From positions 1 to 28,821 of the IMG/VR virus record IMGVR_UViG_3300033997_000105: a stretch of 28,821 nt of DNA, one strand, 5' to 3'. This document shows positions 2,870 through 26,019 of the stretch, piece by piece. The number at the start of each line of letters is the position of its first letter. The stretch's first letter is position 1. This DNA comes from a virus. The position numbers and the translations under genes were made by a program. Under the pieces are notes generated by a model, which was not told the DNA's origin, made no database searches, and saw only the letters and a program-made list of their open reading frames with translations.

Positions 2870-2892
2870 AAAAAAATACCGCCAGGCGGCGG
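2870..2892 (-). terminator. Intra-operon intrinsic terminator upstream of endolysin
   Basis: On the minus strand, CCGCC/GGCGG (2888-2892 with 2879-2883) closes a 4-base loop and is followed by TATTTTTTTG. It lies between the fibre-chaperone stop (2914) and the endolysin Shine-Dalgarno. It should stop unmodified polymerase before the lysis genes unless antiterminated. Confidence 0.75.
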
Positions 2893-2913
2893 TCGGATTC
2901 TGTTGCGGGGCTG

Positions 2914-3294
2914 CTATGCCGGACGCGAGGGTCGGTGTTCCTCGTGGGGGTAGCCCTCGGCGCCTTCCTTCCAGCGGCGCAGCGCAACACCGTATGCCTT
3001 CCATTGCGATTCCGTTCCCAGCAATGCATCGGGGTCCTCGAACAGGATTGCATCCAAGTTATCTTTAACAACCTGAATTTCGGCGTCTCGCCAAGATTCC
3101 TCACTTGCTATTACGAGTAGTTCTTGCGCAAGCTTTTCAGGACGTTCGAAGTATCGCGAAACTTCATCATCGCTCATCAACACAAGACCTTCGATAATGA
3201 ATCCGTCCTGGCTACCATCAGCTGCATATGCATAGATGGCAGATTCGCCGCCCAAAGGTTCGGGACGATAATATTTCATTTCTTCGCTTTTCAT
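2914..3294 (-). CDS. Tail-fibre assembly chaperone-like protein
   Basis: 126-aa acidic protein. The C-terminal part (QWKAYGVALRRWKEG, then YPHEEHRPSRP) has the pattern of phage tail-fibre assembly proteins, which end in a W...Y..ALR.W segment and a Pro-rich tail. The start is taken as ATG at 3294, with GAGGTG a few bases upstream and 2 bases after the fibre stop; an ATG 21 bases upstream lacks such a signal. The position directly after the tail-fibre gene fits a dedicated chaperone for folding or trimerising that fibre. The gene is visibly more AT-rich than the tail genes, as is the fibre, which suggests the two moved as one module. Confidence 0.6.
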   Translation of the reverse strand: MKSEEMKYYRPEPLGGESAIYAYAADGSQDGFIIEGLVLMSDDEVSRYFERPEKLAQELLVIASEESWRDAEIQVVKDNLDAILFEDPDALLGTESQWKAYGVALRRWKEGAEGYPHEEHRPSRPA

Positions 3295-3296
3295 GT

Positions 3297-4676
3297 TCAC
3301 CTCAATTCTTTCCAACTCGGACCAACCATTGCAACACCGCTACTTGTAGCAAGCGAGTATGTGGCATCAGGAGGTACGATCACCGGTTGACATGCGATAA
3401 TCGCCCCGGTGCTAAACCCTGAGCCGCTGTATGCCGCAGGAACCCCGTTGACATAGAGAACAAAATAGTTGCCGACTTGGCCAGCTTGCGCGGCAACACT
3501 GACTTGGATCGGGCGCCCTGTGCTGTTGACGTAGTTTACGCCCGCTGCGCGTTGTGGCGTCATGTCTTGCCAAGATTGGCCAATGCCGATAGGTGTTGCA
3601 TCGGTCCAGGCTGACCAAATACTGTTTAGCTTACGCCGGGTCATTGTATTAGGACTGACCACAGAGTACGCAATTTGCGTAGCTTCATTCGCGGCTCTAA
3701 TGATGGTCAGCACGTTACCGTAGCCAAACAAGTCGGGTCGCCCCACGGCAGTTTCATTGAACGTATAGAAAGATGTGCTGGTGATAGTGTTCAAGTTGGC
3801 AACAGCAGGTGTTGATGTAGCACCTAACCCCATCCAACCGTCGCCGCTTGCAGTCCCGGTGGTTACTAGTTTGCCGACAGTTGCGTCGTAAGTACCTGCT
3901 ACGACGTCCCCCATAGTCAGGGCTCGGCGCCAGTTCCCCCAAACGCCGCCATAACGAATACGCCAAACGGGCGCCGCACGATTGGTATCATCGGTCGCGT
4001 ACGGATATGCAGTTTGCAGGATATGCGTATCCGAATTGTTATAGATATTGTTGTGTACGTACCAATAAGGCGCGGCAGGATTAGTTGAGGAAAGCCCGAA
4101 CGCAGAGTTTGGCGAATTAGGGGCGCTGTTTGCGACCAGCTCCGGCCACCAACCTTGCGCAAGTATGGTGTTGAAGTTTCGGGTTTCGGAAACGGTGGTA
4201 CACAACGGGCGGGTAACTTCGATCAGCGTTCGCACGCTATCCAATGTAGTCGTACCGACCAACTGCTTACCTGCCGCACCAGCCTGCAAGAACGTCATAG
4301 CCCCCGCGTTGTTGGTAAAAATCGGCAGACGATCAACGTCGGAAACTATCGCTGAAAGCGCCGTCAAATTCACGTGCGACAACTGCGCTGCGATGGCGCT
4401 GCGGCCCTGCGCTGCGGATTCTGCAGCTACCAATGCCCGCCCAGCTGTGCCCGTGGCCAACGCACCGATAGTGTCGACGCCCGTGGCGATCAAGAGTTGG
4501 TTCGCGGCCCATACACTGGCTGCAATGGCAGACAATTTGGGGTTGGCAGGCTGGGCGCCACCAACCCCCTGGTAAAGCTCGGTGAAGTTGTCGTTGGTTT
4601 TCTGAAACGCAGTCCGTGCGTCATCGCCGTCCATGCCATCGGGAGCTGTTCCCAGCTCGATTGTCTTCTGAGCCAT
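3297..4676 (-). CDS. Tail fibre / receptor-binding protein with pyocin-knob domains
   Basis: 459-aa protein. The N-terminal part (FQKTNDNFTELY, residues 24-35) resembles the attachment segment of phage fibres. About residues 165-255 and 295-362 look like two pyocin-knob domains, with the typical pattern of a WRIRYGGVWGNWRRAL-type end and a second SIWSAWTDAT end. The C-terminal about 90 residues should form the tip that meets the host receptor. It is likely a trimeric fibre that binds lipopolysaccharide or another surface glycan, but the receptor cannot be deduced. ATG at 4676 follows a purine-rich AGGAGG signal. Base composition is more AT-rich than neighbouring tail genes, as expected for a frequently exchanged host-range module. 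Confidence 0.8.
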   Translation of the reverse strand: MAQKTIELGTAPDGMDGDDARTAFQKTNDNFTELYQGVGGAQPANPKLSAIAASVWAANQLLIATGVDTIGALATGTAGRALVAAESAAQGRSAIAAQLSHVNLTALSAIVSDVDRLPIFTNNAGAMTFLQAGAAGKQLVGTTTLDSVRTLIEVTRPLCTTVSETRNFNTILAQGWWPELVANSAPNSPNSAFGLSSTNPAAPYWYVHNNIYNNSDTHILQTAYPYATDDTNRAAPVWRIRYGGVWGNWRRALTMGDVVAGTYDATVGKLVTTGTASGDGWMGLGATSTPAVANLNTITSTSFYTFNETAVGRPDLFGYGNVLTIIRAANEATQIAYSVVSPNTMTRRKLNSIWSAWTDATPIGIGQSWQDMTPQRAAGVNYVNSTGRPIQVSVAAQAGQVGNYFVLYVNGVPAAYSGSGFSTGAIIACQPVIVPPDATYSLATSSGVAMVGPSWKELR

Positions 4677-4706
4677 GCGGCCTCCTGAATAGTCGTTGCG
4701 GCACGG

Positions 4707-4961
4707 TCAGAAAGCCGGCCCCCAGATCGCGCCGTTGTTGCACTCGAACCGCCGGTAGGTCTTGACCCGCACCGATACCGAGGGCGAGAACGACGGGGCA
4801 ACACCGGTGACCGAGACTGTGCTCTGTTCGGTCACCAGCTCGTGCTTCTTAAGCAGCTCGTCAGTCGGGCGGCACTCGTGCTTGTCGCGGTACTCTGCCC
4901 ACCCGCTGGCACATCCGCCCAAGACCAGGGCGCTCGCCAACATCAGCAACTTATGGTTCAT
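4707..4961 (-). CDS. Small lipoprotein inside tail-fibre module
   Basis: 84-aa protein with a signal sequence (MNHKLLMLASALVLGGC) and lipobox LGGC, so lipidation at Cys17 is expected. The mature part is polar and has two more Cys residues. The ATG at 4961 is preferred over a TTG one codon upstream, because GGAGAG lies 6 bases before the ATG. It overlaps the end of the preceding 62-aa gene. It has no obvious virion role. Phage lipoproteins in tail regions are often superinfection-exclusion factors that mask a receptor (T5 Llp and phi80 Cor are known examples of this function), so that is a reasonable guess, not a demonstration. Confidence 0.65.
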   Translation of the reverse strand: MNHKLLMLASALVLGGCASGWAEYRDKHECRPTDELLKKHELVTEQSTVSVTGVAPSFSPSVSVRVKTYRRFECNNGAIWGPAF

Positions 4962-5139
4962 CAATACTCTCCGGCTTCGGGTGCCGCTCTTTCACGGCCT
5001 TTATGTTTTCGTAGAATCTTTCTGCAATCGGGATCTCGCCGCGATGCATTGCATGCCACAAGTCATCAAGTTGACTTTCGATTGACGGGTACGCTGCAAC
5101 GCGCAGCGCCTCATAGTTGGATCGATGTTCGATTTTCAT
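4951..5139 (-). CDS. Small phage protein (YPSIESQLDDLWHAM type)
   Basis: 62-aa soluble protein with a central AYPSIESQLDDLWHAMHRG block and IPIAERFYENIKAVKERHPKP near the end. This pattern recurs in small proteins found close to tail-fibre genes of many phages, but I know no proven function. ATG at 5139 lies inside the end of the upstream gene (28-base overlap), with GAGGTGATGT just before it. Its stop overlaps the start of the lipoprotein gene, so the two should be translationally coupled. Confidence 0.65.
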   Translation of the reverse strand: MKIEHRSNYEALRVAAYPSIESQLDDLWHAMHRGEIPIAERFYENIKAVKERHPKPESIDEP

Positions 5140-5494
5140 ACATCACCTCAAAGTCAGCGTACGGCCAAAGAGAAATCGATATCCGGAACAATCCCGAACG
5201 ATCAAACCACAACTCAATATCCGTACCGTCGGCCTTGTAGTTCTCGCCATCGATAGTGATAGAAGCCCCCGACTTCACTCCTTTGATCACCGCCCCGTCC
5301 ACATAAACGCCCATGCTCGGGCGCTCAACAATCTCTCCGCCTGCGACATAGTGCCTGTCCCAGTCAATAACGTAGCCCTGCGGAAGAACAAGGCGGTCGC
5401 GATATTCTTCAAGTTCAGAGACAGCCTTATCGCTGGTCGGGTAGTTGATGACGGAAAGGATTCGCCCCGACTCATCATACTCGACAATGTTCAA
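5111..5494 (-). CDS. Phage tail-associated hypothetical protein
   Basis: 127-aa protein, predicted mostly beta (alternating hydrophobic pattern, for example ASITIDGENYKADGTDIELWFD). The start is TTG at 5494, overlapping the end of gpJ by 4 bases, with a strong GGAGG 7 bases upstream (inside the gpJ gene). Its place right after the host-specificity protein J and before the fibre suggests a fibre-adaptor or baseplate accessory role, but I do not recognise a named family. AT content rises here compared with J, marking the start of the variable fibre module. Confidence 0.6.
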   Translation of the reverse strand: MNIVEYDESGRILSVINYPTSDKAVSELEEYRDRLVLPQGYVIDWDRHYVAGGEIVERPSMGVYVDGAVIKGVKSGASITIDGENYKADGTDIELWFDRSGLFRISISLWPYADFEVMYENRTSIQL

Positions 5495-8400
5495 CGTTTG
5501 ACCTCCATGATTGTCATCGCCCGGTTGTCTGTGTAAAGCGCAGCACCAGGACTTAGATCAGGGCTCATTTGGAAGGTAACAGCGCGGGTGCCTGATGCCA
5601 TGCTCAGGATCATGTTCAAGCTGATAGAGCTGGCGGGCACGCCGTTGTATGCAGAACTTGAGGTTGAAGCGCCGAGCCAACGCCCGGAAGTCACGGCTAC
5701 ACCATCGATCAACAACCGCCAGTAGCCGCCTGGCCAGGAGAACGTTCCGCAGTACTGGTTCGACACGTTCATCAGTGCAGGCTGCCCCGTGCTGATGTAG
5801 GTGATGGTCGAGATCGTCGCCCAGTTCGCCACACCCGCAATGCCCCCGACCGATTGAACGCCAGCGCTGTAGTAGCTGACGGGCAAGGTCACTGCCCGGC
5901 CGGCGATCTTGAGGGTGTCAACCGCGAGGTCGGCGATCTTGCCAGTGGTCACCGACAAGTCGGCGATCTTCGCCGTGCTGACCGCAAGGTTCTGGATCTT
6001 CGCCTCGGTGATCGCCGCGTTCGCGATGTTGGCCGTGCCGATCGTGCTTTCCCCGACCACCTCGCTGTTGATGATGACCTGTCCGTTCTGGATCGCGAAC
6101 ACGGACTTGGGAGCCCCGCCAGGCTGGTGCATGACCGCGAACAGGTCGGCCAGGAAGATGACCGTGGACTGCATCCCGTCCGGCGTGTTCTCCACGCCGA
6201 TGCCCATGCCAGCACCGTAGTAGCGACCGTTCACGTCGACGCCGACCTTGATGTTGCGTGTGGCCGAGACGTTGCCTTCCAGGTCCACCACCGCGCTGGC
6301 CGTGTCCTCAACCAGCGCCTCGGTGTTCCCGACGCGGGCAGTGAGCTGCGTCACCGATGTGGCCAAGGCCTGGTCGGCTGTGGCCCGGGTCTGGGCTTCG
6401 CTGGCGATCGCCGCTTCGTTGCCGTCGATGCGGGACTTCTGCGCTGTGATCTGCGCAGTCATCGCTTCGTCTGCCGTCGTGCGCGCCGTGATCTCCTGCT
6501 GCAGGCTCGCTTCGTTGTCGTCGGTCTTCGCCGAAACCGTGGTGATCTGCGTGGCCAGGGCCTCGTCACCGGTCACCCTGGCATAGGCCTCCTGCTCGAA
6601 TCGAGCGTTGAGGTCGTCACCGACCTGCGCCTCGACAACATCGATGCGTCGGCTCAGGGCCTGGTCAGCGTTGCTGAAGGCGCTGTAAACCGACCTAGCC
6701 GCAGCGCGCACACCGGCGCCGCCGGCCTTCCACTTCGTCGCGCCGGCCATCCGCGGGAAGACCTGGGTTTCGACGCCGATCACACGAGTAGCCATCGCCT
6801 GCAGCTCGCCGTCGACCTCCTCCACCCGGGTCTCTACTGCATCGACGCGGATCGCCAACGCGGTCACCAGCTCGCCGAGCGAGGCATAGTCGCCGATGTA
6901 CTCCCAGTAGGCCGCGTTCGTCACCGGGGTGCCGACCGGAACATCCTGCTTGGCGCGGTACAGCTTACCGTCGAGCTTGACCAGGGAGCCGGACAGGTAG
7001 GCGTCGTTCTCGTCCCAATCCGGCGCGCCGACAACATCGGCAAGCTGCGATTGCAGCGAGTCGATCTGGCTCTGCAGCGCGGTGTCGCCTGCGGTGATCC
7101 GGTCGTTGACCGAGCCAGGGCCTTGGCCGCTGATCTTCTCGATCTCCTTCAGCAGGTCCTGACCCAACTGCGTCTCGGTGATCTTGCCCGTGATGTAGTC
7201 GAGGATCGCGCTGGCGTCCGCGCTCGACTGTCCGTAGATCCATTCCGTCCATGGACCGACGTTGCCCGAGCGATCCACCAGGCGCCCACGGAAGTAGCGC
7301 ACCACGGCCGAGGCCATTCCGCTGTGCAGGTAGGTGGGCGTCGGGTAGGCAAACCTGCCCATGTCGACTGGGTTCTGCCCTGATGCCTCCGACGCCATCT
7401 GCAGTTCGGTGTAGGCAGTGTCCTCGGCACCTGGTGGAAAGCCCCAGCTGACGCGAATGCCGAGAATCTCGGAGTCGGTCCGCAGGAACGCCAGCGCAGG
7501 TGGATCTTCCTCCTTGCCCTTCAGCTCGGTCAGGGCAGATGTACGCCAGGTCGAGGTGATATCGAACGCGCTGACAGAGCGAGCGCGGGCCAGATAGGCG
7601 CCAGCGTAGATGCCGACCACGTCGACAGAGGCTGTGCCTGTGCGCGGCATCCTGACCCAGTTGCCACTGTCCTTGCGCCACTCGACATCGTAGGCGACGG
7701 CCCCTTCCACGGCGGGCCAGGCGATAGTCATCGTGCTGACGGCCAGGCCCTGGGCAATCGCGTAGTCGGACGTCAGGGTCACGCTCGCCGGTGGAGGCAC
7801 GGTCGTAACCGGGATGACGCTGATCGGCCGCTCCTCGAGCTTTGCGCCGGTGTCTATCGCGGCGAACTTACTCGGGTTGAACTCCAGCGCGGTGATCTCG
7901 TACTCGCCGTCAGCGGTGCGCGAGGTCTTCAGCACCCGGAACAACTGGATGGCCAGGTCGTCGGCGTCGATCGCCCACTGCAACTCTGGCTCCGGCTGCA
8001 CGCTGTAGGCCGTGGTCACCGTCACGGCGCGCCCGGTCACTGACTGCACTGTGCGGCCCTGGGCGCTGCCGTTGGGCAGGTTTATGATCAGCCGGTCGCC
8101 GGCCTTGATCTGCGTGTCACGGTCCAGGGTCACGACCTTGCCGGCCGCCGCAGCGATGCGGCCGCCGTTGGGCCGGCCGGACAGCAGATCATCGGCCACC
8201 GGGATGACGTGGCCAGGCAGTGGAATGCGGCCCTCCATGCCAGTCTTGAAGGTGACGGTGCGGTCCTGATTGTTGCTCAGCAGCGCCCACTTGCCGCGGC
8301 GCTGTGCCTCGCTGGCCCTGGTGCAACCAATGGCCGAGATCTCGATGGGTCGATCCTGGTACCGGCGCTGCAGCGCAAGGTCGGTTACCGGGATCACATC

Positions 8401-9666
8401 GGTGTCGTAGTTGTTCCCCGGGTTGTCGTAGCTGACCAGGGCACGGCTGTAGTGCGTGCTGCGCTCGGCGCCGCCGTACGTGAACTCGCCGTCGATGACG
8501 TTCGCCCGGGTGAACACGTAGTCGAAGTCCTGCGCCCGGGGCATGTCGGCTTGCATGAACAGCGCGCCCTGCGCCCAGTACACCATGCCCCGGTAGATGG
8601 CCGACAGGTCGCGCAGCAGCGTCCAGGCCTCGGCCTTGGCCTGCAGGTTCATGTCGCACAGGAAGCGCGGCTCCTGGCCGCCCACCCCATCCGGTACCAG
8701 CTGGTCGCAGTACTGGGCGATGCGGTACATCTCCCACTTGTCGACCATCCACGACTTGATGCGCTTGCCCAGGCCGAACCGGTCCTCGACGCACAGGCCA
8801 TAGGTGACGAAAGCCGGGTTGTTGGTCCAGGCCTGCTTGAAGGTGCCGTCCCAGGTGCCGCTGTAGGTGCGGGCGATCGGGTCGTAGTTAGTCGGTACCG
8901 GCCAGCGGCGGGCTTTACACTTCACAGTCACCGACGGGATGTTCTGGAACTGCTCGGCATCGAACTCGATGTAGAGCAGCGCGGTGTTGGGGTAGCGCAG
9001 CTTCTGGTCGATGATTTCGGTGTAGGCCGCGACGGTCATCGTGTCGGCAATGGCGCCGGTGTTGGCGTTCGGCGTGAGGCGCCGGGCGCGGATCACCCAG
9101 CCCGAGGTCGCCGCCGGCAGGTCGACGCGCACGGATCGCTGATAGCCGCCGCTGGTCTTCCCGCTGACGGCGTTGCGGTGCGCCTCAACGAAGGCGCCGC
9201 CGTCGGTGGCGATGTCGATCGCATACTCGATGGTGTAGCCGTTGGTGTCGCCGGTGCTGGTGCTCTGGCTCATCAGGCGCGGCCAGGAGAAGCGCAGACG
9301 CACCGCCGACAGCTGAGTGTTGCTCAGGGCGCGAGTCCACGGCGCGTCACCGCGCAGTTCGACATTCACCGATGTCTCGCTCTCGATCGCCGGTATGCCT
9401 TGGATGTAGTCCTGTTCAACTGTCCCGGGGCGCCACTCCCACTTCACACCAGGCAAGTTCACGTTGCCGCTGGCATCCTCGATTGGCGTGTTGTCCAGGT
9501 AGATATCGCGGGCAGTCGGCGTGCCGTCGAACTCGCCCTCGCCCACGGCCAGCAGGATCTTGGCAATGTTGGTGGACCGCAGGCTATCGGGGGCTTCGTA
9601 CGGGGCCTTCGGTTTCTTCTCGCCGCCCTTGGAGCCGCTGACTACGGGTGGAAGTTCTGCGCCCAT
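5491..9666 (-). CDS. J: Tail tip / host-specificity protein J
   Basis: 1391-aa central tail-tip protein of the lambda gpJ family, which forms the tip below the tail tube and contacts the receptor. The N-terminal half (YEAPDSLRSTNIAKILLAVGEGE, VYLD-type and GLCVEDRFGLG segments) is the conserved tip part. Residues about 625-820 look like two fibronectin type III domains. About 882-927 resembles a carbohydrate-binding module 5/12 pattern (WDENDAYLSGSLV, GKLYRAKQDV, YWEYIGDY). About 935-1112 forms heptad-like coiled-coil repeats (ATQITTVSAKTDDNEASL). About 1205-1258 carries short repeats of the AKIADLSV type. The ATG at 9666 is chosen over an upstream in-frame codon because GGAGG lies 5 bases before it and a terminator hairpin precedes that. 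Confidence 0.92.
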   Translation of the reverse strand: MGAELPPVVSGSKGGEKKPKAPYEAPDSLRSTNIAKILLAVGEGEFDGTPTARDIYLDNTPIEDASGNVNLPGVKWEWRPGTVEQDYIQGIPAIESETSVNVELRGDAPWTRALSNTQLSAVRLRFSWPRLMSQSTSTGDTNGYTIEYAIDIATDGGAFVEAHRNAVSGKTSGGYQRSVRVDLPAATSGWVIRARRLTPNANTGAIADTMTVAAYTEIIDQKLRYPNTALLYIEFDAEQFQNIPSVTVKCKARRWPVPTNYDPIARTYSGTWDGTFKQAWTNNPAFVTYGLCVEDRFGLGKRIKSWMVDKWEMYRIAQYCDQLVPDGVGGQEPRFLCDMNLQAKAEAWTLLRDLSAIYRGMVYWAQGALFMQADMPRAQDFDYVFTRANVIDGEFTYGGAERSTHYSRALVSYDNPGNNYDTDVIPVTDLALQRRYQDRPIEISAIGCTRASEAQRRGKWALLSNNQDRTVTFKTGMEGRIPLPGHVIPVADDLLSGRPNGGRIAAAAGKVVTLDRDTQIKAGDRLIINLPNGSAQGRTVQSVTGRAVTVTTAYSVQPEPELQWAIDADDLAIQLFRVLKTSRTADGEYEITALEFNPSKFAAIDTGAKLEERPISVIPVTTVPPPASVTLTSDYAIAQGLAVSTMTIAWPAVEGAVAYDVEWRKDSGNWVRMPRTGTASVDVVGIYAGAYLARARSVSAFDITSTWRTSALTELKGKEEDPPALAFLRTDSEILGIRVSWGFPPGAEDTAYTELQMASEASGQNPVDMGRFAYPTPTYLHSGMASAVVRYFRGRLVDRSGNVGPWTEWIYGQSSADASAILDYITGKITETQLGQDLLKEIEKISGQGPGSVNDRITAGDTALQSQIDSLQSQLADVVGAPDWDENDAYLSGSLVKLDGKLYRAKQDVPVGTPVTNAAYWEYIGDYASLGELVTALAIRVDAVETRVEEVDGELQAMATRVIGVETQVFPRMAGATKWKAGGAGVRAAARSVYSAFSNADQALSRRIDVVEAQVGDDLNARFEQEAYARVTGDEALATQITTVSAKTDDNEASLQQEITARTTADEAMTAQITAQKSRIDGNEAAIASEAQTRATADQALATSVTQLTARVGNTEALVEDTASAVVDLEGNVSATRNIKVGVDVNGRYYGAGMGIGVENTPDGMQSTVIFLADLFAVMHQPGGAPKSVFAIQNGQVIINSEVVGESTIGTANIANAAITEAKIQNLAVSTAKIADLSVTTGKIADLAVDTLKIAGRAVTLPVSYYSAGVQSVGGIAGVANWATISTITYISTGQPALMNVSNQYCGTFSWPGGYWRLLIDGVAVTSGRWLGASTSSSAYNGVPASSISLNMILSMASGTRAVTFQMSPDLSPGAALYTDNRAMTIMEVKR

Positions 9667-9683
9667 GCTTTCCTCCGGGCAAG

Positions 9684-9703
9684 AAAAAACCGCCCGAAGG
9701 CGG
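9684..9703 (-). terminator. Intra-operon intrinsic terminator upstream of J
   Basis: On the minus strand, CCGCC-TTCG-GGCGG (9703-9690) with the stable TTCG tetraloop is followed by six T residues, then CTTGCCCGGAGG, which is the J ribosome binding site. It lies in the gap after gpI and should be bypassed by antiterminated polymerase. Confidence 0.8.
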
Positions 9704-9722
9704 CCTGGTGACAGTTCAGTTG

Positions 9723-10334
9723 TTATGCCTTGTCTTCGGCGTAGACGGATGCGGAGATGATCGCCCCACCCCACCGGCGCTCACCGATGCAGATCGGTAC
9801 CGGGTTGCCGCTGGCGGTGGTGTTGTTCGCACTGCCGAAGGCGTAGGACGGTCGATTCTCCGGGGCGGCACTCATCGATAGGCCTTTCGCCTGAGGGCTC
9901 AGCATCTGGATGACACCACCCAAGGCCATCGACCCACCCCCCATACCAACCGCCAAGGCCGTGGCGGCAGACCAGCCGAGCGGGTTCCACCAGGCTAGCG
10001 CCACAATGGCAACGCCGATGATGGTCTGAAGAAGGCCGGCGCGTTTACTGCCGCCGATCACCGGCACGATTCGGACCTCCCTGGTACCCCCCCTGCCGAA
10101 TTCGTCCATGCCAACATTCTTCCGGTTCCGGAACACGGCAAACCGCAGGCCCATGCTATCCAGTCGCCTGATCTCTTCCTCGAAGCCATTCAAAGTTGCT
10201 TTGAGCGCCTTGAATACCTCCCAGGTCTCACCGGTTTCGATCTGGCGGCGATGGGTTCTTCCGAACCTCCTGGCCAGCGATCCGGTCAGTTTGATGGTCG
10301 TCATCCTTTGATAGTTGATAGCCAGTCCTGACAT
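9723..10334 (-). CDS. I: Tail assembly protein I (gpI-like)
   Basis: 203-aa protein of the lambda gpI tail assembly family. The conserved N-terminal block is TIKLTGSLARRFGRTHRRQIETGETWEVFKAL, and the C-terminal part contains a Gly/Ala-rich hydrophobic stretch (about residues 105-140), then ENRPSYAFGSANNTTASGNPVPICIGERRWGG, a segment typical of the family. GpI helps J assemble into the tail tip and is probably not in the finished virion. The start MSGLAINYQ (10334) is favoured by a GGGAGA signal; a second ATG at 10304 begins where the family homology begins and is an alternative. Confidence 0.85.
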   Translation of the reverse strand: MSGLAINYQRMTTIKLTGSLARRFGRTHRRQIETGETWEVFKALKATLNGFEEEIRRLDSMGLRFAVFRNRKNVGMDEFGRGGTREVRIVPVIGGSKRAGLLQTIIGVAIVALAWWNPLGWSAATALAVGMGGGSMALGGVIQMLSPQAKGLSMSAAPENRPSYAFGSANNTTASGNPVPICIGERRWGGAIISASVYAEDKA

Positions 10335-10351
10335 TGCTTTTCTTCTCCCAT

Positions 10352-10375
10352 AAAAAAACCACCCGAGGGTGGTTT
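10352..10375 (-). terminator. Intra-operon intrinsic terminator between lipoprotein and gpI
   Basis: On the minus strand, AACCACC-CTC-GGGTGGTT is followed by TTTTTTATGGGAGA. It begins within about 15 bases after the lipoprotein stop codon. The U-tract runs directly into the ribosome binding site of gpI, the same layout as upstream of J. Confidence 0.8.
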
Positions 10376-10389
10376 GATTAGTTGAGCAG

Positions 10390-10743
10390 CTAGATGCAGG
10401 CTTTGACCGCATCGGTCACCCTCTGCAACGGAGACTGCCAAGTTCGATAAAAATGATACTGAACAAACGATCCGCTTCCTTTCGGTGTGACATCAACCAC
10501 ATGTAGCGGGGCCTGGGCGTCGGGGGCCAGGACGGAATATCGCCCCCCTGTGGATTGAAGAATGCCGCCTATGCTTGCGCCGAGAACAGTCGTGCTTTGC
10601 CAGCTATCGCGGATACACTCCGCCACCCCTGGAGCTGGCTTCGAGGACTGCAATGACAACAACGGTGGGTTACTTCGCGTGTCGTTCACACTCGCACATC
10701 CCGCCAGAAGCGCCAGCCAAACCAACACAACAAGTGCTCGCAT
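10390..10743 (-). CDS. Phage lipoprotein between tail genes K and I
   Basis: 117-aa protein with a clear signal peptide and lipobox LLAGC (Cys16), followed by a polar Ser/Asn-rich linker and a soluble domain with two further Cys residues (CIRDSW and KACI), which could form a disulfide in the periplasm. GGAGGG lies 6 bases before the ATG at 10743. Lambda has no gene here between K and I, so it is an insertion in the tail tip block. It is followed closely by an intrinsic terminator, a layout common for accessory genes. Superinfection exclusion or envelope remodelling in the infected cell are plausible roles but unproven. Confidence 0.7.
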   Translation of the reverse strand: MRALVVLVWLALLAGCASVNDTRSNPPLLSLQSSKPAPGVAECIRDSWQSTTVLGASIGGILQSTGGRYSVLAPDAQAPLHVVDVTPKGSGSFVQYHFYRTWQSPLQRVTDAVKACI

Positions 10744-12616: not shown

Positions 12617-15600
12617 TAACGCCTCCTTGGGCTGTTGGCATGACTGACGCCGCCGGGGCGCCAAGAGGCCGCAACCACACGCTCGGCAACACCTTGCATC
12701 TGCTGCTGCATCGCCTGCCCGAGCGCATCGGTATCCAGCTGCATGCCCTCGGAGCTGCGGTCTTGCATGGTGAAGTGCATCGGTGCGTTCACCTGCACAA
12801 CGGTGCCACCCCCCTGATTGCCGCCCACCACCTGCACACCCAGCGATCCGTCGGCGCCGCGGGCCAGGGGCATGATCGCTTCAGGGCCGGCTTCACCGGC
12901 GACGCCCAGCTTGCCGCCGGCCATACCGAACGCCGTTGGCTGGTTGAGCACGCTGTTGGTGAAGGCACCACCCTTGGCGAACATCTGCACACCGCCCTGC
13001 CAGGCGCCGCCCAGCGCTTGCGGGAAGTAAGCGCTGCCGTAGCCAGCCTGGGACGCGCCCAGGTTGGACGACACGGCGCCTGCCGATCCGGCCGGCAGAC
13101 CATTGCCACCGCCGCCGAAGTAGCTGCCCACAGCCGATATCCCCATGCCGATCAGGCCGCTGAGCAGAGAGCTTGCGGCCTGCTGGCTGGCGATCCTGGC
13201 CATGTCGCTGATGACGCTGGTGGCGAAGTCCCTGAACTTCATCTTGCCGGTCATGGCGAAGTTGGTCAGGGACGCGGTGGCCGAGTCGAAGCCCGCAGAC
13301 AAGGTGCGATCCGTTGCACCTGCGACGTCCGCCGCGTCGGCCTGGATGTTGGCCCAGGCGCGCTTGGCGCCGTTGCGGTAGTCGCGCTGGGCCTGCAGCT
13401 TGGCCTCGTGGCCGTCGACCTCCATCTGCAGCTCGCGGGCCTGGTAGTCGGCCAGGTCGGCCAGGCGCTGCTCGTAGGCCGATTGGCTCAGTTGGCGCGA
13501 CACGTCCTCCTGCTGCTCCTCCAGCTGCCGGCGGGCATCGGCGTACTTCTGCCGCACAGCGTTCAGGCGGTCGGCCTGCTCGCGCTGATCGTCGCCCATG
13601 CCCACGCCGGCCACGTCCGCATTGATCGCGTCCTGCCGGGTTTGCAGCACCACCTCCATTGCCTTGCGGTAGGCCTCGGCGCTGTTGCGCCGCACCTCTG
13701 CCAGCTTGCGCTCCTCCTGGGTGCGCTTCTGGATTGTGTCTTCGCCATATGCCTGGTTCAGGTTCTTGATGCCGAGTTCCATTTCGGCAGCGGTGATCTT
13801 GCCGGCGGCCTGGGCTTTGCGTAGCCCCTTCACACCCTCCGCCAGATCCTCGAGGCGCTTCTTCTCCGGCAGCGCCTTGTCGATGATGGCGTCCAGCGCC
13901 TTGATCTCGTCCTTCAGCGCCTTGGTGCGGTCCTTGCTGCTGTCGGTGGCGTCCTTGTTGGCCTTCTTCTGCGACTCGATCGCATTGGCCGCCGACAGGA
14001 TGGCCTGGCGATCCGTCTCGCTGAGGCTGGCGTTCTCCGCGATGTGGCGGTTGGCGATCTTGATCGCATCGCCATTGTCCTGCAGGCCGGCCAGCTGCTT
14101 CTGCAGGGTGTCCAGGTAGGACTGGCCCGCCGTGGTCATGCCGGCCTTCGCGGCGTTGTTCGCCTGCGTCGAGGCGGTGTTCTCGTTGGTGACCCCGGTC
14201 AGCACGCGCAACGTTTCAGCGATCAGCGCAGAGCGCTGGTCGGCATCGCTGACGGCGCCGGCCTGGGTGATCCACTGCTGCACGGTGGCGGTCGGCAGGT
14301 TCAGGCGGTCGCCCACCTCCCGCAGCACAGGCGACAGTTCGGTACCGGCGGCCCTGGCCTCCTTCAGCCGGTCGACCACCTCCTGGAACGCACGCAGCTG
14401 CTGGCCATACTGGCCGCCAGAGTCGCGGGCGGGCGCGGTAACAACCGCCTGCCGGATGGACTGGGCCAGGTCGCCGTAAGCCTCCTTCACCTTGTCGGTG
14501 GCGTTGATCTGCTCCTGTTGCCACTTCACCAGCGAGGCTTCGCGCTGGTCCCGGTTGAGCTGGGCGAATTCTTCCCGCAGCTGTGCAACCGGCTTCTTCA
14601 GCTCCTCAATGCTGACGCTGGCCTTGTCGGCGTTGGTGCCCAGCAGCAGGAAGCTGGCCGCTGCGGTGCCGGCCAGCAGCGCGAGCCCCATGGGGCCGCC
14701 CATCATCGCGAGCACGCCGGCCGACGCTGCACGCAAACCGGTCTGTGCCGTTGCAACAGCCGTAGTGGCCGCCGCTTCCAGGGCTCTGGCCTGGGCCAGC
14801 TGGAGCGACATTTCCGTTTGCACGGCGGTACCGCGTGCCGCTGCAGCCTCACGCGCCGCCAGGATCGTGGCTGTTTGCGCCTTGCGCTGATCGGCAATCG
14901 CAGCCTGCAACACGGCTTTCGCCTGGGCGATGCGCGCTGCACGGTCGGCCAGCGCGGCCTGGAGCGCGAGGCCTGCCTTCGCGACATAGTTGGTCAGCGC
15001 GGCAACACCGGCGCCGCCCATGGCGACAGCAACCAGGTTGACGTTGTCCGCCAGAGCCAGCAGGACTTTCGACAGCCCACCCACAAGCCCGGTGCGCTCC
15101 TCCATCCCGCCAAGGAAAGTGCTGATGGCGTTGCTGATGTTGACCATGGCGTCTTGGACGCTGGTCGACATGTCAGCAGCAGCCTTGCGGTTGACCTCGA
15201 CGGTGCGCAGCAGGCCCGTGTTGAGGTCGTCCAGCGACAGCTTGCCCTCGACGCCGAGCTTGCGAATCTCCTTGGCGCTCTTGCCGGTGGCGCTGGCGAT
15301 CGCGTCAACGATGGTCGGCATCGCCGTCTGAATGGAGATCCATCCATCGGCCTCGACCTTGCCGGTCTGCAGTGCTTTCGAGTAGGCGTCCAGCGCTGCG
15401 GCGCCCTTGTCAGCCGTCGCGGCGTTGGTCACCAGCAGAAAGCTGAAGCTGTCGGTGATCTCCAGCGCCTGCTGGGTATTGAATCCCAACGTCTTCATGA
15501 CGTCCGCGGTGCGGATGTACAACTCCTGGGCCTCGGCAAGGGGGCGGTAGGTCTCCTGGGCCGTGCGCAGCAGATGCTCCTGCACTTCCTGATACACGGC

Positions 15601-15900
15601 GGTACTGCCGGCCGCAGCCTTCATCCGGTCGGCCATCTGCCCGTAGGCGTCGACCTGCTTGATGATGCCGCCGATCATGCCGGCACCGGCAACAGCCGCC
15701 AGCGCCCCGCGGATCAGCGTGCCTGCGCCCTGAGCTGCCGCACCTGTCTTGTCGAAGGCCGAGTCGACGGTGGCCAGGTTGCGGTCGATCGCCTGACTGC
15801 TGCGGGCCACCACCTGGTCGGCACTGGCCAGTTCGCGGCGCAGCTGGGCGGTTGTCGCCTCGATCTGGACCAGCATCCCCTGGACTTGTTGATCGGCCAT
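12616..15900 (-). CDS. H: Tail tape measure protein
   Basis: 1094-aa protein that sets tail length and passes DNA or ends up in the host membrane at ejection. The N-terminal region (about residues 1-250) matches the phage tape-measure domain (ELYIRTADVMKTLGF, GKLSLDDLNTGLL). Hydrophobic segments occur near residues 60-80 and about 400-420. The middle and C-terminal parts are long Ala/Gln/Glu-rich helical repeats, and the end is Gly-rich (YFPQALGGAWQGGVQMFAKGG). ATG at 15900 has GGAG 6 bases upstream; an ATG 4 codons earlier lacks one. It lies directly after the G/GT chaperones, in the order fixed in lambda-like tails. Confidence 0.93.
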   Translation of the reverse strand: MADQQVQGMLVQIEATTAQLRRELASADQVVARSSQAIDRNLATVDSAFDKTGAAAQGAGTLIRGALAAVAGAGMIGGIIKQVDAYGQMADRMKAAAGSTAVYQEVQEHLLRTAQETYRPLAEAQELYIRTADVMKTLGFNTQQALEITDSFSFLLVTNAATADKGAAALDAYSKALQTGKVEADGWISIQTAMPTIVDAIASATGKSAKEIRKLGVEGKLSLDDLNTGLLRTVEVNRKAAADMSTSVQDAMVNISNAISTFLGGMEERTGLVGGLSKVLLALADNVNLVAVAMGGAGVAALTNYVAKAGLALQAALADRAARIAQAKAVLQAAIADQRKAQTATILAAREAAAARGTAVQTEMSLQLAQARALEAAATTAVATAQTGLRAASAGVLAMMGGPMGLALLAGTAAASFLLLGTNADKASVSIEELKKPVAQLREEFAQLNRDQREASLVKWQQEQINATDKVKEAYGDLAQSIRQAVVTAPARDSGGQYGQQLRAFQEVVDRLKEARAAGTELSPVLREVGDRLNLPTATVQQWITQAGAVSDADQRSALIAETLRVLTGVTNENTASTQANNAAKAGMTTAGQSYLDTLQKQLAGLQDNGDAIKIANRHIAENASLSETDRQAILSAANAIESQKKANKDATDSSKDRTKALKDEIKALDAIIDKALPEKKRLEDLAEGVKGLRKAQAAGKITAAEMELGIKNLNQAYGEDTIQKRTQEERKLAEVRRNSAEAYRKAMEVVLQTRQDAINADVAGVGMGDDQREQADRLNAVRQKYADARRQLEEQQEDVSRQLSQSAYEQRLADLADYQARELQMEVDGHEAKLQAQRDYRNGAKRAWANIQADAADVAGATDRTLSAGFDSATASLTNFAMTGKMKFRDFATSVISDMARIASQQAASSLLSGLIGMGISAVGSYFGGGGNGLPAGSAGAVSSNLGASQAGYGSAYFPQALGGAWQGGVQMFAKGGAFTNSVLNQPTAFGMAGGKLGVAGEAGPEAIMPLARGADGSLGVQVVGGNQGGGTVVQVNAPMHFTMQDRSSEGMQLDTDALGQAMQQQMQGVAERVVAASWRPGGVSHANSPRRR

Positions 15901-15916
15901 GCATTTCTCCAAGCAC

Positions 15917-15937
15917 GAAAAGCCGCCCGTAGGCGGC
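15917..15937 (-). terminator. Intra-operon terminator upstream of tape measure gene
   Basis: On the minus strand, GCCGCC (15937-15932) pairs with GGCGGC (15927-15922) around a 4-base loop and is followed by TTTTCG, a short U-tract. It begins 6 bases after the GT stop codon. The short U-tract makes it weaker than its counterparts upstream of J and I. Confidence 0.6.
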
Positions 15938-16542: not shown

Positions 16543-16562
16543 GACGGGGCCGAAGCCCCGTC
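16543..16562 (-). promoter_or_regulatory. GC hairpin with TTCG loop after tail tube gene
   Basis: GACGGGGC-TTCG-GCCCCGTC is a perfect 8-bp stem beginning 2 bases after the tail tube stop codon. No U-tract follows. It could protect the 3' end of the tube mRNA or dampen readthrough into the chaperone genes, which are needed in much lower amounts. Confidence 0.6.
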
Positions 16563-19112: not shown

Positions 19113-19127
19113 AAATCCTCCAGGAGT

Positions 19128-19145
19128 GGGCGCCCGTGGGCGCCC
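19128..19145 (-). promoter_or_regulatory. GC hairpin after major capsid gene
   Basis: On the minus strand GGGCGCC (19145-19139) pairs with GGCGCCC (19134-19128) around a 4-base loop. It starts 6 bases after the capsid stop codon and has no U-tract. It most likely stabilises the capsid mRNA 3' end; it is the counterpart of the hairpin after the tail tube gene. Confidence 0.55.
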
Positions 19146-19151
19146 GCTCGA

Positions 19152-22207: not shown

Positions 22208-22416
22208 CAGCTCCCTCCTCGAATGACGGCATACGCCGACAGTGCCATCAGGATCACCCCGCACACCGACAGCGCCACGGCCTCACCAAAGCCAACCCAG
22301 AGTCCGCGTGCAAGCAGGCCGAAGCCGACCATGCCGACCACATCCGGCAGGCTTTCGCGCAGGCGAGCGAGGGCCGACGCCTCGTCTTCACGGGGCGCCT
22401 CTTGTTCAGGAGTCAT
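22207..22416 (-). CDS. Small membrane protein between terminase and portal
   Basis: 69-aa protein. A polar N-terminus (MTPEQEAPREDEASALARLRE) is followed by a hydrophobic segment of about 45 residues that can form two transmembrane helices (VVGMVGFGLLARGLWVGFG and AVALSVCGVILMALSAYAVI). The ATG at 22416 overlaps the end of the large terminase gene by 4 bases. The stop overlaps the portal start. A membrane protein is unexpected in this spot; it could be an accessory or exclusion factor, or a holin-type protein. I do not recognise the family. Confidence 0.65.
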   Translation of the reverse strand: MTPEQEAPREDEASALARLRESLPDVVGMVGFGLLARGLWVGFGEAVALSVCGVILMALSAYAVIRGGS

Positions 22417-24212
22417 AGGGTTCTGATTCCGTGTTTGGTTATGTGATCCGAGAGGCTCTTTTCTGCCTTCGCCTCGGTCTGGTTTGCGGCACCAACAGAC
22501 ATCGCCATGGCGACGGCACCATCGATGCGTCCGGTTTTCTTGCGCTTGGAGAAGATCCGGTTTTCCTGGGCGTCCGCCTCCATCACCGCCGAGGCGACGT
22601 TCCATGTCAGGCAGGGGTTATCCAGCACCTGGATCTTGCCTGTTAGGATCAGATCCTCGAGCAGGTCGATTGAGTGGGTCATCCACAGGTTCGAATCCCG
22701 GGCCGGTCGGAAGCCCTGCCCATGGGGAACCAGGTTCAACTCGATACCCTGCGCCTCGAGCTCTGCCTCCAGATAGGTCATGTGATACGGGTCGAAGGCA
22801 ACGGCCTTGATGTCGTACTTGGCTGCCAGCTCACCAAGGCGCTTGGCTACGAAGGCATAGTTGATCGCTTTACCAGGTGGCGCATGGATATGGCCGTCCT
22901 GCAGCCAGACCTCGTAGGGCACCCCGTCGATTGCCGCCCTGTCCAGCAACGTATCCTTCGGTGTCCAGAACTCGGTTATGGCCTTGCCCTCTTCAGGGAA
23001 GTAGAGGTTCAGGGCCGTCAGGTCGCGCTTACCGGAAAGGTCCAGCCCGCCGAAGCAGGTCAGCCCATCCAGCTTGTTCGGGTCAAACTTGGCGCAGCAT
23101 GACAACCAGGTGTCGATCTCGACCCATGGATTCGCTGCGTCAACCCACTGGCAGAAGTTCAGCCGCCGCACGGTGCTGGCCTTCGCCGGCATACCCTTCG
23201 CATCGGTCACCTGCTCGCGCAGGTACTTCGGCTGGAAGGTATGCCCCAGGGACGGGTTCGCCTTACCCCAGCATTTCTCGTCCCTGAATGGGTCGTCGCC
23301 CTTATCCAGCGAGCAGATGAAGGCGAAGAAACTGTCGTTGAAGTGGCGGTGCCGCTTCGTGACGCCTTTCGCACCGGCCGCGCAGACGTTCACGCCGAGC
23401 TGGTGGTAGCTGTAGCAAACCGATGTGCGGTCGTGACCGCTGTTGGTGATCATCAGGATCAGCGCCTGCCGACGGCCTTTCGTGCCGGCCCGCATGAACT
23501 CGACGGTCTTGTTGTTCTTGTGCTCGTGCACCTCATCGATGAGAGCACAGTGCGGGCGCGGCCCAGACTGGCCATCGTCGGAACTGATCGGCCGAAAGAA
23601 GGATCCGGTGGCAAGGTATGCCAAGTTCCAGACCTTCTCATCGCGACCGGACTTCTTGATCTTCTTCTTCAGGGCGGGCGACTGATCAACCATCGCCACC
23701 GCATCACGGAACAGGATCATGGCCTGGTCGCGCTTCGTCGCCGCAGCGTACACCTCGGCCCGCGGTTCGCCATCCGAGGTCAGGCAGTACAGCCCGATAC
23801 CGCCGGCAAGCGGAGACTTGCCAGAACCTTTACCCGACTCGATGTACACCGTACGAAATCGCCGGAAGCCATCGGCGCCAAGCCAGCCGAAGATCGAACC
23901 CACGATGAACGCTTGCCACGGCAGCAGAACAAACGGCTTACCTTCGTGCTCGCCGCCGTTGAGCTTGAGGACCGTGCTGAAGTACCGGATTGCCCGACTG
24001 GCCTTCGCGATATCCCACACCAGGCCACGCTTCGGCCCATCCTCCAGGTCGCGGAGGTGACGGCCACAAGCATTGCGAATATCAGGCCCTGCCAAGACCT
24101 TGCCGGATTGGACATCCAAGGCCCAGGCGGTTACAGGGTCAACCTCATAGGAAACCTTCCTGACCTCAGTTGAAGAACTCGTCTTCCGGGTCTTTACTCG
24201 TTGGTTCGCCAA
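22413..24212 (-). CDS. Terminase large subunit (HK97-type, Terminase_1)
   Basis: 599-aa packaging motor and nuclease. The ATPase domain has the Walker A ESGKGSGKS (125-133) and Walker B CALIDE (222-227). The nuclease domain has conserved Asp residues in GGLDLSGKRD (near 391), AFDPYHM and RIDGAVAMAM at the C-terminal end. It overlaps the small subunit gene by 47 bases and the small membrane gene by 4 bases. It should cut at a cos site and package DNA together with the HNH protein encoded upstream. Confidence 0.94.
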   Translation of the reverse strand: MANQRVKTRKTSSSTEVRKVSYEVDPVTAWALDVQSGKVLAGPDIRNACGRHLRDLEDGPKRGLVWDIAKASRAIRYFSTVLKLNGGEHEGKPFVLLPWQAFIVGSIFGWLGADGFRRFRTVYIESGKGSGKSPLAGGIGLYCLTSDGEPRAEVYAAATKRDQAMILFRDAVAMVDQSPALKKKIKKSGRDEKVWNLAYLATGSFFRPISSDDGQSGPRPHCALIDEVHEHKNNKTVEFMRAGTKGRRQALILMITNSGHDRTSVCYSYHQLGVNVCAAGAKGVTKRHRHFNDSFFAFICSLDKGDDPFRDEKCWGKANPSLGHTFQPKYLREQVTDAKGMPAKASTVRRLNFCQWVDAANPWVEIDTWLSCCAKFDPNKLDGLTCFGGLDLSGKRDLTALNLYFPEEGKAITEFWTPKDTLLDRAAIDGVPYEVWLQDGHIHAPPGKAINYAFVAKRLGELAAKYDIKAVAFDPYHMTYLEAELEAQGIELNLVPHGQGFRPARDSNLWMTHSIDLLEDLILTGKIQVLDNPCLTWNVASAVMEADAQENRIFSKRKKTGRIDGAVAMAMSVGAANQTEAKAEKSLSDHITKHGIRTL

Positions 24213-24624
24213 TGGCCTGGACCTTGGAACGTGCGGCTGGTGTCATGCCGAAGTGGGTTAGGTAGGACAGGAGCCGGCGGTCAGCGTCAGCCGCCATGGC
24301 TACCGCAGGATGGGCCTTGATCAGCCCGGTTGCGGTCGCATAGGTGTGCCCCTCTTTCGCAATGACATCGGTCAGCCGACGAACCTCGGCGGCGACCTCG
24401 CATAGTCGCTCCAGGGTCTGGAGGTCAGCCTCAGCAAGCACGCCCATCGAGGACGCAAGTGGGCAGAACACTTTCCACACCGCCTTGCCCCCAGCAGTCA
24501 TGTGAGCGGGCGGAGGCTGGTAGGACGCGACAGCAAGCTGCGGTTCGCGCTTGTTTTCCCGAGCCGGGCGCGACGTTCCGGTGACCTTTTTCTGGGCCGT
24601 GGGAGCTGGCGTTCTGCCCTTCAA
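24166..24624 (-). CDS. Terminase small subunit (P27 family)
   Basis: 152-aa DNA-recognition subunit. The N-terminal MKGRTPAPTAQKKVTGTSRP block is typical of P27-type small terminases, followed by helices (LTHFGMTPAARSKV near the C-terminus) of the usual C-terminal pattern. The start is TTG at 24624: GGAG lies 8 bases upstream across a T-run, and the family's typical N-terminus begins exactly there. The start overlaps a T-rich sequence, which may make translation weak. It binds near cos and hands DNA to the large subunit. Confidence 0.88.
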   Translation of the reverse strand: MKGRTPAPTAQKKVTGTSRPARENKREPQLAVASYQPPPAHMTAGGKAVWKVFCPLASSMGVLAEADLQTLERLCEVAAEVRRLTDVIAKEGHTYATATGLIKAHPAVAMAADADRRLLSYLTHFGMTPAARSKVQAIGEPTSKDPEDEFFN

Positions 24625-24754
24625 AAAAAAGGCTCCAATTCTGGCTTTTTGCGTAAAGAGGGTCGAGGGCGGTCTTACTAAACGAGAACGACTACTTTTT
24701 GACCCTCCCCTAGGGGCTGTGGCGTGCTACAGAAACCACATTCGAGACTGACTC
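24625..24754. other. Probable cos region
   Basis: This 130-base noncoding stretch lies between the HNH endonuclease and the small terminase genes, where HK97-type phages carry cos. It contains the perfect palindrome CCCCTAGGGG (24707-24716) and the inverted repeat GAGGGTC (24658-24664) / GACCCTC (24701-24707) about 36 bases apart. The AT-rich stretch at about 24690-24700 next to them fits a site for bending or nicking. I cannot define the staggered cut positions from the sequence. Confidence 0.5.
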
Positions 24755-25081
24755 TCATTTGCTGCGCCGCTGGCGGTTCCAGTGGTGGTTCGGGTCGATC
24801 GGCAGGCCGTTTACGTCGCACCCCACGATCACGCCCGACTTCTCCTCGCGCTGCTTCGCGCTGTCGTGGCAGGTCTTGCAGAGGCTCTGCAGGTTGCTCC
24901 CATCAAAGAACAGGCTCTCGTCACCACGGTGCGGCTTCACGTGGTCCGCGATGCTCGCGCCGACGGTCCGCCCTTGCGATGAGCAGCGACGGCACAGCGG
25001 CTCGTTCTGCAGCTGATGCCATCGAAGCTGATACCAGCGTTTCGTGTTGTAGAGGTGGTGCCAGGGCGAGTTACTTGCCAT
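24755..25081 (-). CDS. HNH endonuclease (HK97 gp74-like)
   Basis: 108-aa HNH nuclease. The zinc-binding pair LCRRC is followed by the ADHVKPHRGD His motif, then NLQSLCKTCHDSAKQ with the second CxxC and the final His. In HK97-type phages the HNH protein works with the terminase to cut cos, and the gene here sits right before the cos region and the small terminase, as expected. Start: ATG at 25081 overlaps the upstream stop as TGATG; a GTG one codon earlier is the alternative. Confidence 0.88.
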   Translation of the reverse strand: MASNSPWHHLYNTKRWYQLRWHQLQNEPLCRRCSSQGRTVGASIADHVKPHRGDESLFFDGSNLQSLCKTCHDSAKQREEKSGVIVGCDVNGLPIDPNHHWNRQRRSK

Positions 25082-25281
25082 CACTCACCCTCTCGCCGCA
25101 TGCCAACTTGGCTGGCGATATCGGCAGCACGCTCACGCACCTCCAGCACCTGGCCGTCGAACATGTGGACGATGGCGCAGACGCCGTGCCACTGGGAGCT
25201 GGTGCCGGCCTCCTGCACGCGGGCAATGGCGGTCGGCGACAGGAAGTGCTGGCGGCGGTTGATGTCGGTCAGGGTGATCAT
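25081..25281 (-). CDS. FlbD-like small protein
   Basis: 66-aa protein with MITLTDINRRQHFLSPTAIARVQ at the start and FDGQVLEVRERAADIASQVG at the end. This resembles the short beta-rich FlbD-type fold (MI.LT.LNG..F.LN...I..IE), in which one copy of the domain makes up the whole protein. The resemblance is by pattern only. It is linked by ATGA overlap to the upstream TM-plus-coiled-coil gene and by TGATG overlap to the HNH gene. Role unknown. Confidence 0.6.
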   Translation of the reverse strand: MITLTDINRRQHFLSPTAIARVQEAGTSSQWHGVCAIVHMFDGQVLEVRERAADIASQVGMRREGE

Positions 25282-25607
25282 TGCGTGCTCTCCAGCTGGG
25301 CGCGGCTCAGTGCCTCGTCAGCCTTGTCGGCGGCCTTGGTTGCTGTGGTCGCGGCTTTCGAAGCCTTGGCCGCGGCGTTGTCGGTTCGCTTGGTCAGCTC
25401 GTCCAGGCGCTTGTCGCGCTCAGCCATAGCCGCATCGTAGGCATCCCGGATCTGGGCTACCTGGCTGGCCTGGGTGCTGGCCATCGCCCAGTAGGCGGAC
25501 TGCCAACCCAGGACGGCACCACCGGCGATCAACAGCGCGGCGATGACCCACACCTCGGCGCGCCGCCACCACCGGCGGGCGATGAATTCCAATGCACATC
25601 TGTCCAT
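25278..25607 (-). CDS. Membrane-anchored coiled-coil protein
   Basis: 109-aa protein. A transmembrane segment (VWVIAALLIAGGAVLGW, about residues 20-36) follows a basic N-terminus (ARRWWRR), and a long Ala/Lys/Asp-rich coiled coil (residues about 50-105) makes up the rest. The ATG at 25607 overlaps the upstream stop as TGATG. Together with the preceding gene it forms a pair of small single-TM proteins at the start of the late operon, where other Pseudomonas siphophages carry holin genes. It may be a holin, an antiholin or a spanin-like factor; sequence alone does not decide. Confidence 0.6.
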   Translation of the reverse strand: MDRCALEFIARRWWRRAEVWVIAALLIAGGAVLGWQSAYWAMASTQASQVAQIRDAYDAAMAERDKRLDELTKRTDNAAAKASKAATTATKAADKADEALSRAQLESTQ

Positions 25608-25978
25608 CACGAGTTACCTCCCAGCTTGCCGCGCAGGCGGGCGATCTCCTCGCTCTGGGCTGTGACTCGATCAGTGAGCTGGCCGACCTGACTGGTCAGC
25701 GCTTCGATCTTGCCCTCCAGGCGCCCAACGGTTGCCGCAAGGTCGTTGCGCTCCTTCGCGAACTGGTCAGCGCGGGATTCGGCCAGCTTGCGGGCTTCTC
25801 GCTCGGAATCGAGCAGTTCATTCAGGCGCCGGACGGTGCCGATGTCGGCGTTGTCCATGGCTCGGTCTGTCGCGTCCTTGGAGAGGAACTTGCGCAGCCA
25901 AAGGAAGCCGCCCAGCAGCACGGTGCCCGAGCCGGTCAGCCAGGTGGCTGTGCCTGGGCCGAGGTCGGTCGGGTCCAT
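25607..25978 (-). CDS. Holin candidate: single-TM protein with coiled coil
   Basis: 123-aa protein. One transmembrane segment near the N-terminus (WLTGSGTVLLGGFLWLRKFL, about residues 13-32) precedes a long coiled coil (residues about 50-118) rich in Arg, Glu and Leu. No other gene in the window is a better holin candidate, and the endolysin lacks a signal peptide, so a holin is needed. The gene begins the block after the terminator at 26001-26019, where lambda has its holin. ATG at 25978 has TGGAG 6 bases upstream. The function is inferred from topology and position. Confidence 0.55.
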   Translation of the reverse strand: MDPTDLGPGTATWLTGSGTVLLGGFLWLRKFLSKDATDRAMDNADIGTVRRLNELLDSEREARKLAESRADQFAKERNDLAATVGRLEGKIEALTSQVGQLTDRVTAQSEEIARLRGKLGGNS

Positions 25979-25994
25979 CCTTATCTCCAGAAAC

Positions 25995-26019
25995 GAAAAA
26001 GGCCCGCGCGAGGCGGGCC
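25995..26019 (-). terminator. Intrinsic terminator upstream of the holin candidate
   Basis: On the minus strand GGCCCGC (26019-26013) pairs with GCGGGCC (26007-26001) around a 5-base loop and is followed by TTTTTCGTTTC. It separates the AT-rich unknown gene from the packaging and structural genes and is a good candidate for a tR'-like terminator overcome by Q. Confidence 0.8.

What the first reader, a model, noticed from the sequence alone, without database searches (positions are those of the whole stretch)
2870..26019. Recurring terminator-then-ribosome-binding-site module in the late operon
Terminator-like hairpins occur at 26019-25995, 15937-15917, 10375-10352, 9703-9684 and 2892-2870. 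In each case the U-tract runs straight into the Shine-Dalgarno of the next gene (holin candidate, tape measure, I, J, endolysin). So many terminators in one operon suggest the Q complex must pass all of them, and that leaky lysogen transcription is cut off before the tail tip and lysis genes. It could also control the ratio of tail proteins.
Basis: partly seen in the sequence, partly recalled or inferred. Interest (0 to 1): 0.6.

Follow-up and report, generated by a model that had tools for sequence, protein, structure and literature searches.

The report
Conserved hairpin stops in phage operon
A bacterial virus carries terminator-like RNA hairpins fused to the ribosome-binding sites of its tail and lysis genes; relatives keep them at the same gene borders and HK97, N15 and T1 records already annotate them, but what they do is still unproven.

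Summary
All five hairpins exist at the stated places (within 1-2 bases), and each stem ends 21-23 nt before the ATG of the next gene. This is far beyond chance: 5 observed, 0.01-0.015 per shuffle, maximum 1. Relatives keep them. Terminators precede J in 96/97 loci, the tape measure in 83/91, I in 82/101 and the endolysin in 70/75 distinct upstream regions, but genes M and L in 0/221. The hairpins covary.

It is not new. GenBank records of HK97, N15 and T1 already annotate terminators at the same borders, and lambda itself has one before J. [quoted passage not shown]

The Q/lysogen reading is only partly supported. The module is as frequent where no Q was detected as where Q is present, and virulent T1 has it. 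Mu, B3, D3112 and P2, which use no antitermination, lack it in their late genes.

Stronger hairpins without a U-tract follow the capsid and major tail genes. Function was not measured; the best guess is a transcription stop that the modified polymerase passes.

The parts
26633..27007 (-). Q-like antiterminator gene
   Evidence: PF06530 31.9 bits (cut-off 26); phrog_79 E 6.9e-27
26533..26558 (-). terminator between Q and the late genes, tR'-like position
   Evidence: 10-bp stem, hairpin -12 kcal/mol, T 7 of 8
25976..26020 (-). module 1: terminator hairpin 26020-26000, T-run, SD, ATG of holin-like gene
   Evidence: 39 of 62 distinct upstream regions of relatives have a terminator
19128..19145 (-). 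U-less hairpin GGGCGCC-CACG-GGCGCCC after major capsid gene, before SD of next gene
   Evidence: gap sequence; hairpin in 58/58 distinct relatives, U-tract in 1/58
16543..16562 (-). U-less hairpin GACGGGGC-TTCG-GCCCCGTC after major tail gene, before SD of next gene
   Evidence: gap sequence; hairpin in 81/87 relatives, U-tract in 6/87
15898..15937 (-). module 2: terminator hairpin 15937-15922, T-run, SD, ATG of tape measure gene
   Evidence: 83/91 relatives; covariation
10332..10375 (-). module 3: terminator hairpin 10375-10356 after lipoprotein (moron-like) gene, T-run, SD, ATG of I
   Evidence: 82/101 relatives
10390..10743 (-). moron-like lipoprotein gene inserted between K and I
   Evidence: phrog_914, unknown function; the K-I gap is empty or variable in relatives
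9664..9703 (-). module 4: terminator hairpin 9703-9690, T-run, SD, ATG of J
   Evidence: 96/97 relatives; covariation
2852..2893 (-). module 5: terminator hairpin 2893-2878, T-run, SD, ATG of endolysin
   Evidence: 70 of 75 distinct upstream regions

Best explanation
The five elements are selected intrinsic-terminator-type RNA hairpins fused to the ribosome-binding site of the next gene, part of a punctuation system shared by lambda/HK97-type siphophages. Shown: hairpin, U-tract, spacing, conservation and covariation. Inferred: unmodified RNA polymerase stops there, so transcripts from leaky, host-flanking or moron promoters do not reach the tape measure, tail-tip and lysis genes, while polymerase carrying the late antiterminator (Q here) reads through and the SD, placed just after the U-tract, is exposed only on read-through RNA. 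Also inferred: residual termination and the U-less hairpins after the capsid and major tail genes help keep mRNA for abundant proteins above mRNA for tape measure, tip and lysis genes.
For: Terminator anatomy: J, TMP and I hairpins carry 6.4-6.5 T in the 8 bases after the stem, at least 5 T in 97-98%. Stem strength is like host terminators, median -8.3 against -9.0 kcal/mol. Position-specific conservation: J 96/97, TMP 83/91, I 82/101, against M 0/111, L 0/110, K 2/105. Double-changed paired cells exceed all shuffles: J 16 (maximum 11), TMP 15 (7), I 72 (35). Spacing: 211 of 342 sense-strand terminators lie 15-25 nt before a start against 1 of 135 on the antisense strand; in host chromosomes 5 of 97 do. 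A terminator precedes I in 81/90 loci where an extra gene sits between K and I and in 0/10 where K abuts I. Q-like gene plus tR'-like terminator upstream. No module in late genes of Mu, B3, D3112, P2.
Against: No RNA measurement. Module frequency does not depend on a detectable Q, and virulent T1 has it. One strong tR' would be enough to silence the operon if the late promoter were the only source of transcription. The J and TMP terminators are present even without an adjacent moron. The promoter scan found no more promoter-like sites inside the operon than shuffles give.
Confidence: 0.5

Rival explanations
1. Ratio control in the lytic cycle: the modules are partial terminators that step transcription down from the capsid and tail-tube genes to the low-copy tape measure, tip and lysis genes, whether or not there is a lysogenic state.
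For: Borders fall where copy number drops. Virulent T1 has the same borders marked. Hairpins after the capsid and major tail genes lack U-tracts and so would not stop transcription there. Many relatives show no detectable Q.
Against: Q-modified polymerase is generally termination-resistant (established for lambda Q), so little step-down is expected in Q phages. Repeated terminators before I and J, which are needed in similar low numbers, are not explained. No expression data.
Confidence: 0.25
2. Post-transcriptional role: the hairpins protect 3' ends or mark processing sites of the long late mRNA, and isolate the next SD from upstream GC-rich RNA. The U-tract is then an unstructured ribosome or S1 landing zone rather than a termination signal.
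For: The U-less class is real, stronger (-14 kcal/mol) and covarying (CAPend 23 double-changed cells, shuffle maximum 9; MTPend 19, maximum 10), and sits in the same compact hairpin-SD-ATG layout. Spacing is tight.
Against: At TMP, I, J and endolysin the T-run is near-universal and directly abuts the stem as in terminators. Most other starts in the operon do without such a hairpin.
Confidence: 0.15
3. Gene-insertion scars: the terminators came in with morons or serve as short shared sequences for recombination between phages.
For: I-terminator present in 81/90 loci with an inserted gene and 0/10 without. Near-identical module in front of non-homologous endolysins (window; L010 22488-22530).
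Against: J and TMP terminators are present with no neighbouring moron (I-J gap 20-100 bp: 73/73). Covariation shows the paired structure is kept while its sequence changes, which a passive scar or homology tract would not do.
Confidence: 0.08

Closest known systems
Putative terminators in the late operon of coliphage HK97 (GenBank NC_002167)
   Same: Annotated after the capsid gene, before and after the major tail gene, before H (tape measure), before I and before J; hairpin-T-SD-ATG layout at H, I, J
   Different: Different host and sequence; the hairpins after capsid and tail genes are all labelled terminators there, although the one after the tail gene has no T-run
Putative rho-independent stem-loops of N15 (NC_001901), and the lambda I-J gap (NC_001416)
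   Same: Before J, before and after the capsid gene; lambda ACCGCCTGCGGGCGGTTTTGTC before J
   Different: No terminator before the tape measure or I, where genes overlap
Late region of virulent phage T1 (NC_005833), described as 'transcriptons' flanked by terminators (PMC11447400)
   Same: Terminators at capsid end, tail end, tape measure and J
   Different: No lysogeny; no Q family found; some T1 modules leave room for a promoter after the hairpin, the window's do not
Intra-operon terminators of Salmonella phage L (PMC8022706)
   Same: Terminator inside a single-promoter, antiterminated late operon; same two functions proposed
   Different: A terminator at the end of the procapsid gene module of a P22-like phage; that paper says the roles are not known

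Membership tests
Intrinsic (rho-independent) terminators | GC-rich hairpin directly followed by a U-run | tested here: met
   for modules 1-5; not met for the capsid-end and MTP-end hairpins
Intrinsic (rho-independent) terminators | RNA polymerase releases the transcript at the U-run | not testable with these tools
   needs RNA 3'-end mapping or in vitro transcription
Lambdoid late-operon intra-operon terminators | Located between co-directional late structural or lysis genes at borders seen in HK97, N15, lambda | tested here: met
Q-antiterminated late operon | Q gene upstream and a terminator close downstream of it | tested here: met
Q-antiterminated late operon | Q modifies polymerase at the late promoter so that it passes the terminators | not testable with these tools
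   no promoter or Q-binding element was mapped and no RNA data are available
Q-antiterminated late operon | Modules occur only where Q occurs | tested here: inconclusive
   Modules equally frequent with and without detected Q, but many records are fragments and Q types vary; for PF06323 not even the control genomes gave a hit
Moron cassette | Inserted gene with its own promoter and terminator | tested here: inconclusive
   The K-I insert is followed by a terminator; the promoter scan showed no excess of promoter-like sites

The most novel reading that the evidence does not exclude
The late operon carries a two-class RNA punctuation code: strong U-less hairpins that guard the mRNA of capsid and tail-tube genes without stopping transcription, and weaker U-tract hairpins that stop part of it before tape measure, tip and lysis genes. 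Together they would set virion protein ratios during lytic growth, independent of Q and lysogeny.
Probability: 0.25. Interest if true: 0.6.

Novelty: new member of a known kind. Interest (0 to 1): 0.37.

Why it matters
Terminators inside phage late operons have been annotated for years with no known role (PMC8022706). The survey here shows they are fixed at particular gene borders in about a hundred related prophages, and that a second, U-less class sits just after the two most abundant virion genes. The question then becomes a clean test: add or remove the U-tract at one border and measure RNA and virion protein ratios. If the effect is real, it explains how one promoter can feed genes whose products are needed in hundreds of copies and in only a few.

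Tried and rejected
Chance: rejected by two randomisations and by antisense and host-chromosome controls. A known RNA family: Rfam gave no match in the window. Internal promoters after the hairpins: no excess of promoter-like sites, and 21-23 nt leaves no room for one. Q as a strict requirement: scans with PF06530, phrog_79, PF06323 and PF03589 left many module-bearing records without a Q hit; this is not decisive because records are partial and Q is diverse. RNAalifold on the raw MAFFT alignments of TMP and I failed through gaps and was replaced by pair counts on the consensus hairpin. The Fc02 transcriptome paper concerns another type of Pseudomonas phage, and its retrieved passages mention neither antitermination nor late-gene terminators at these borders. 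Phage records NC_003278 and NC_005284 were not held.

Full report
WHAT IS THERE. The window is a whole 28,821-base IMG/VR virus record. Its late operon runs on the - strand from a Q-like antiterminator gene (26633-27007; PF06530, phrog_79) through terminase, capsid, major tail protein, tape measure, M, L, K, I, J, tail fibre and endolysin genes. A sixth terminator, 26558-26533, lies just downstream of Q in the tR' position.

CHANCE. With the 38 gene starts held fixed, local shuffling gives 0.01-0.015 modules per window (maximum 1) against 5 observed; random start positions never reached 5 in 20,000 draws. In the first 89 loci (the window, 80 viral contigs and 8 phage records) the sense strand has 342 strict terminators, 211 of them 15-25 nt before a start codon; the antisense strand has 135, one of which does. 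In 800 kb of Pseudomonas chromosome from four genomes, both strands, 97 terminators are found by the same rule and 5 lie 15-25 nt before a start. The compact layout is therefore a feature of these phage operons, not of the host or of the search rule.

CONSERVATION. With 80 viral contigs, 37 prophage loci from sequenced genomes and 8 phage records, a terminator lies within 75 nt of the start of J in 96/97, the tape measure in 83/91, I in 82/101, the endolysin in 11/12 and the major tail gene in 32/84. The same test at M, L, K and two small tail-region genes gives 0/111, 0/110, 2/105, 0/80 and 0/90. Separate scans give 70/75 distinct upstream regions for endolysin relatives and 39/62 for the holin-like gene, so the first module is the least constant. 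On alignments, paired cells changed on both sides exceed every shuffle: J 16 (maximum 11), TMP 15 (7), I 72 (35). Structure, not sequence, is kept. Many of these loci are close relatives, so the counts are not independent events.

A SECOND CLASS. Between the capsid gene and its successor a GC hairpin is present in 58/58 distinct relatives, but a T-run in only 1. After the major tail gene a hairpin is present in 81/87 and a T-run in 6. These hairpins are stronger (median about -14 kcal/mol, against -8 to -9.5 for TMP, I and J), have 2.2-2.8 T in the next 8 bases against 6.4-6.5, and covary too (23 and 19 double-changed cells, shuffle maxima 9 and 10). The operon thus has two kinds of hairpin in the same hairpin-SD-ATG layout, sorted by position: U-less after the abundant proteins, U-tract before the scarce ones. 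I did not find this contrast stated in the papers searched. In coliphages it is weaker: HK97 and N15 have no T-run after the tail gene, while lambda, D3 and T1 have partial or full T-runs after the capsid gene.

MORONS. Where K runs straight into I, no terminator precedes I (0/10). Where one or more extra genes sit between them, one does (81/90). At J the terminator is there whatever the I-J gap (95/96). So the I terminator travels with inserted genes, and the J terminator does not.

IS IT Q AND THE LYSOGEN? For: a Q-like gene and a tR'-like terminator are in place, and Mu, B3, D3112 and P2, whose late operons are switched by activators, have no module in their late genes. Against: in records where no Q was found, TMP (18/18) and J (22/22) have the module just as in Q-positive ones (23/23, 21/21), though many records are fragments and Q is diverse. 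Virulent T1, with no lysogen and no Q hit, carries annotated terminators after capsid and tail genes and before tape measure and J, several in the same compact form. Some T1 modules have room for a promoter after the hairpin, so T1 is not a clean counter-example. Lysogen silencing alone does not explain the pattern.

WHAT IS KNOWN. The GenBank records of HK97 and N15 already annotate putative terminators at these borders, and lambda has one before J. [quoted passage not shown] The TLS paper describes the T1 late region as transcription modules flanked by terminators (PMC11447400).

VERDICT. Real, strongly conserved and structurally selected, but a new member of a known kind. The most likely mechanism is a stop for unmodified polymerase that antiterminated polymerase passes, with a possible further effect on protein ratios. 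No transcription was measured, so the functional part stays inference.

Noticed in passing
window 19145-19128 and 16562-16543: Strong hairpins without a U-tract directly after the major capsid and major tail genes, conserved and covarying in relatives.
   Followed up: yes
window 2893-2852 and L010 22488-22530: Nearly identical hairpin-T-SD module stands in front of two non-homologous endolysin genes, so the module outlives swaps of the gene behind it.
   Followed up: partly
window 105-40: Sequence like the 3' end of a tRNA (GGTTCGAGTCC...ACCA) followed by a strong terminator at the record's low end: probable attachment site. ARAGORN found no complete tRNA in the window.
   Followed up: no
window 875-1669: D12-class adenine methyltransferase gene (PF02086) after the lysis genes at the end of the late operon.
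   Followed up: no
window 26040-26459: Gene between the tR'-like terminator and the first module matches no PHROG or Pfam family.
   Followed up: no
L167 (lambda) 6099-6138 and 15465-15508: Lambda itself has compact terminator-SD-ATG modules before E and J that are not marked in the RefSeq record.
   Followed up: partly
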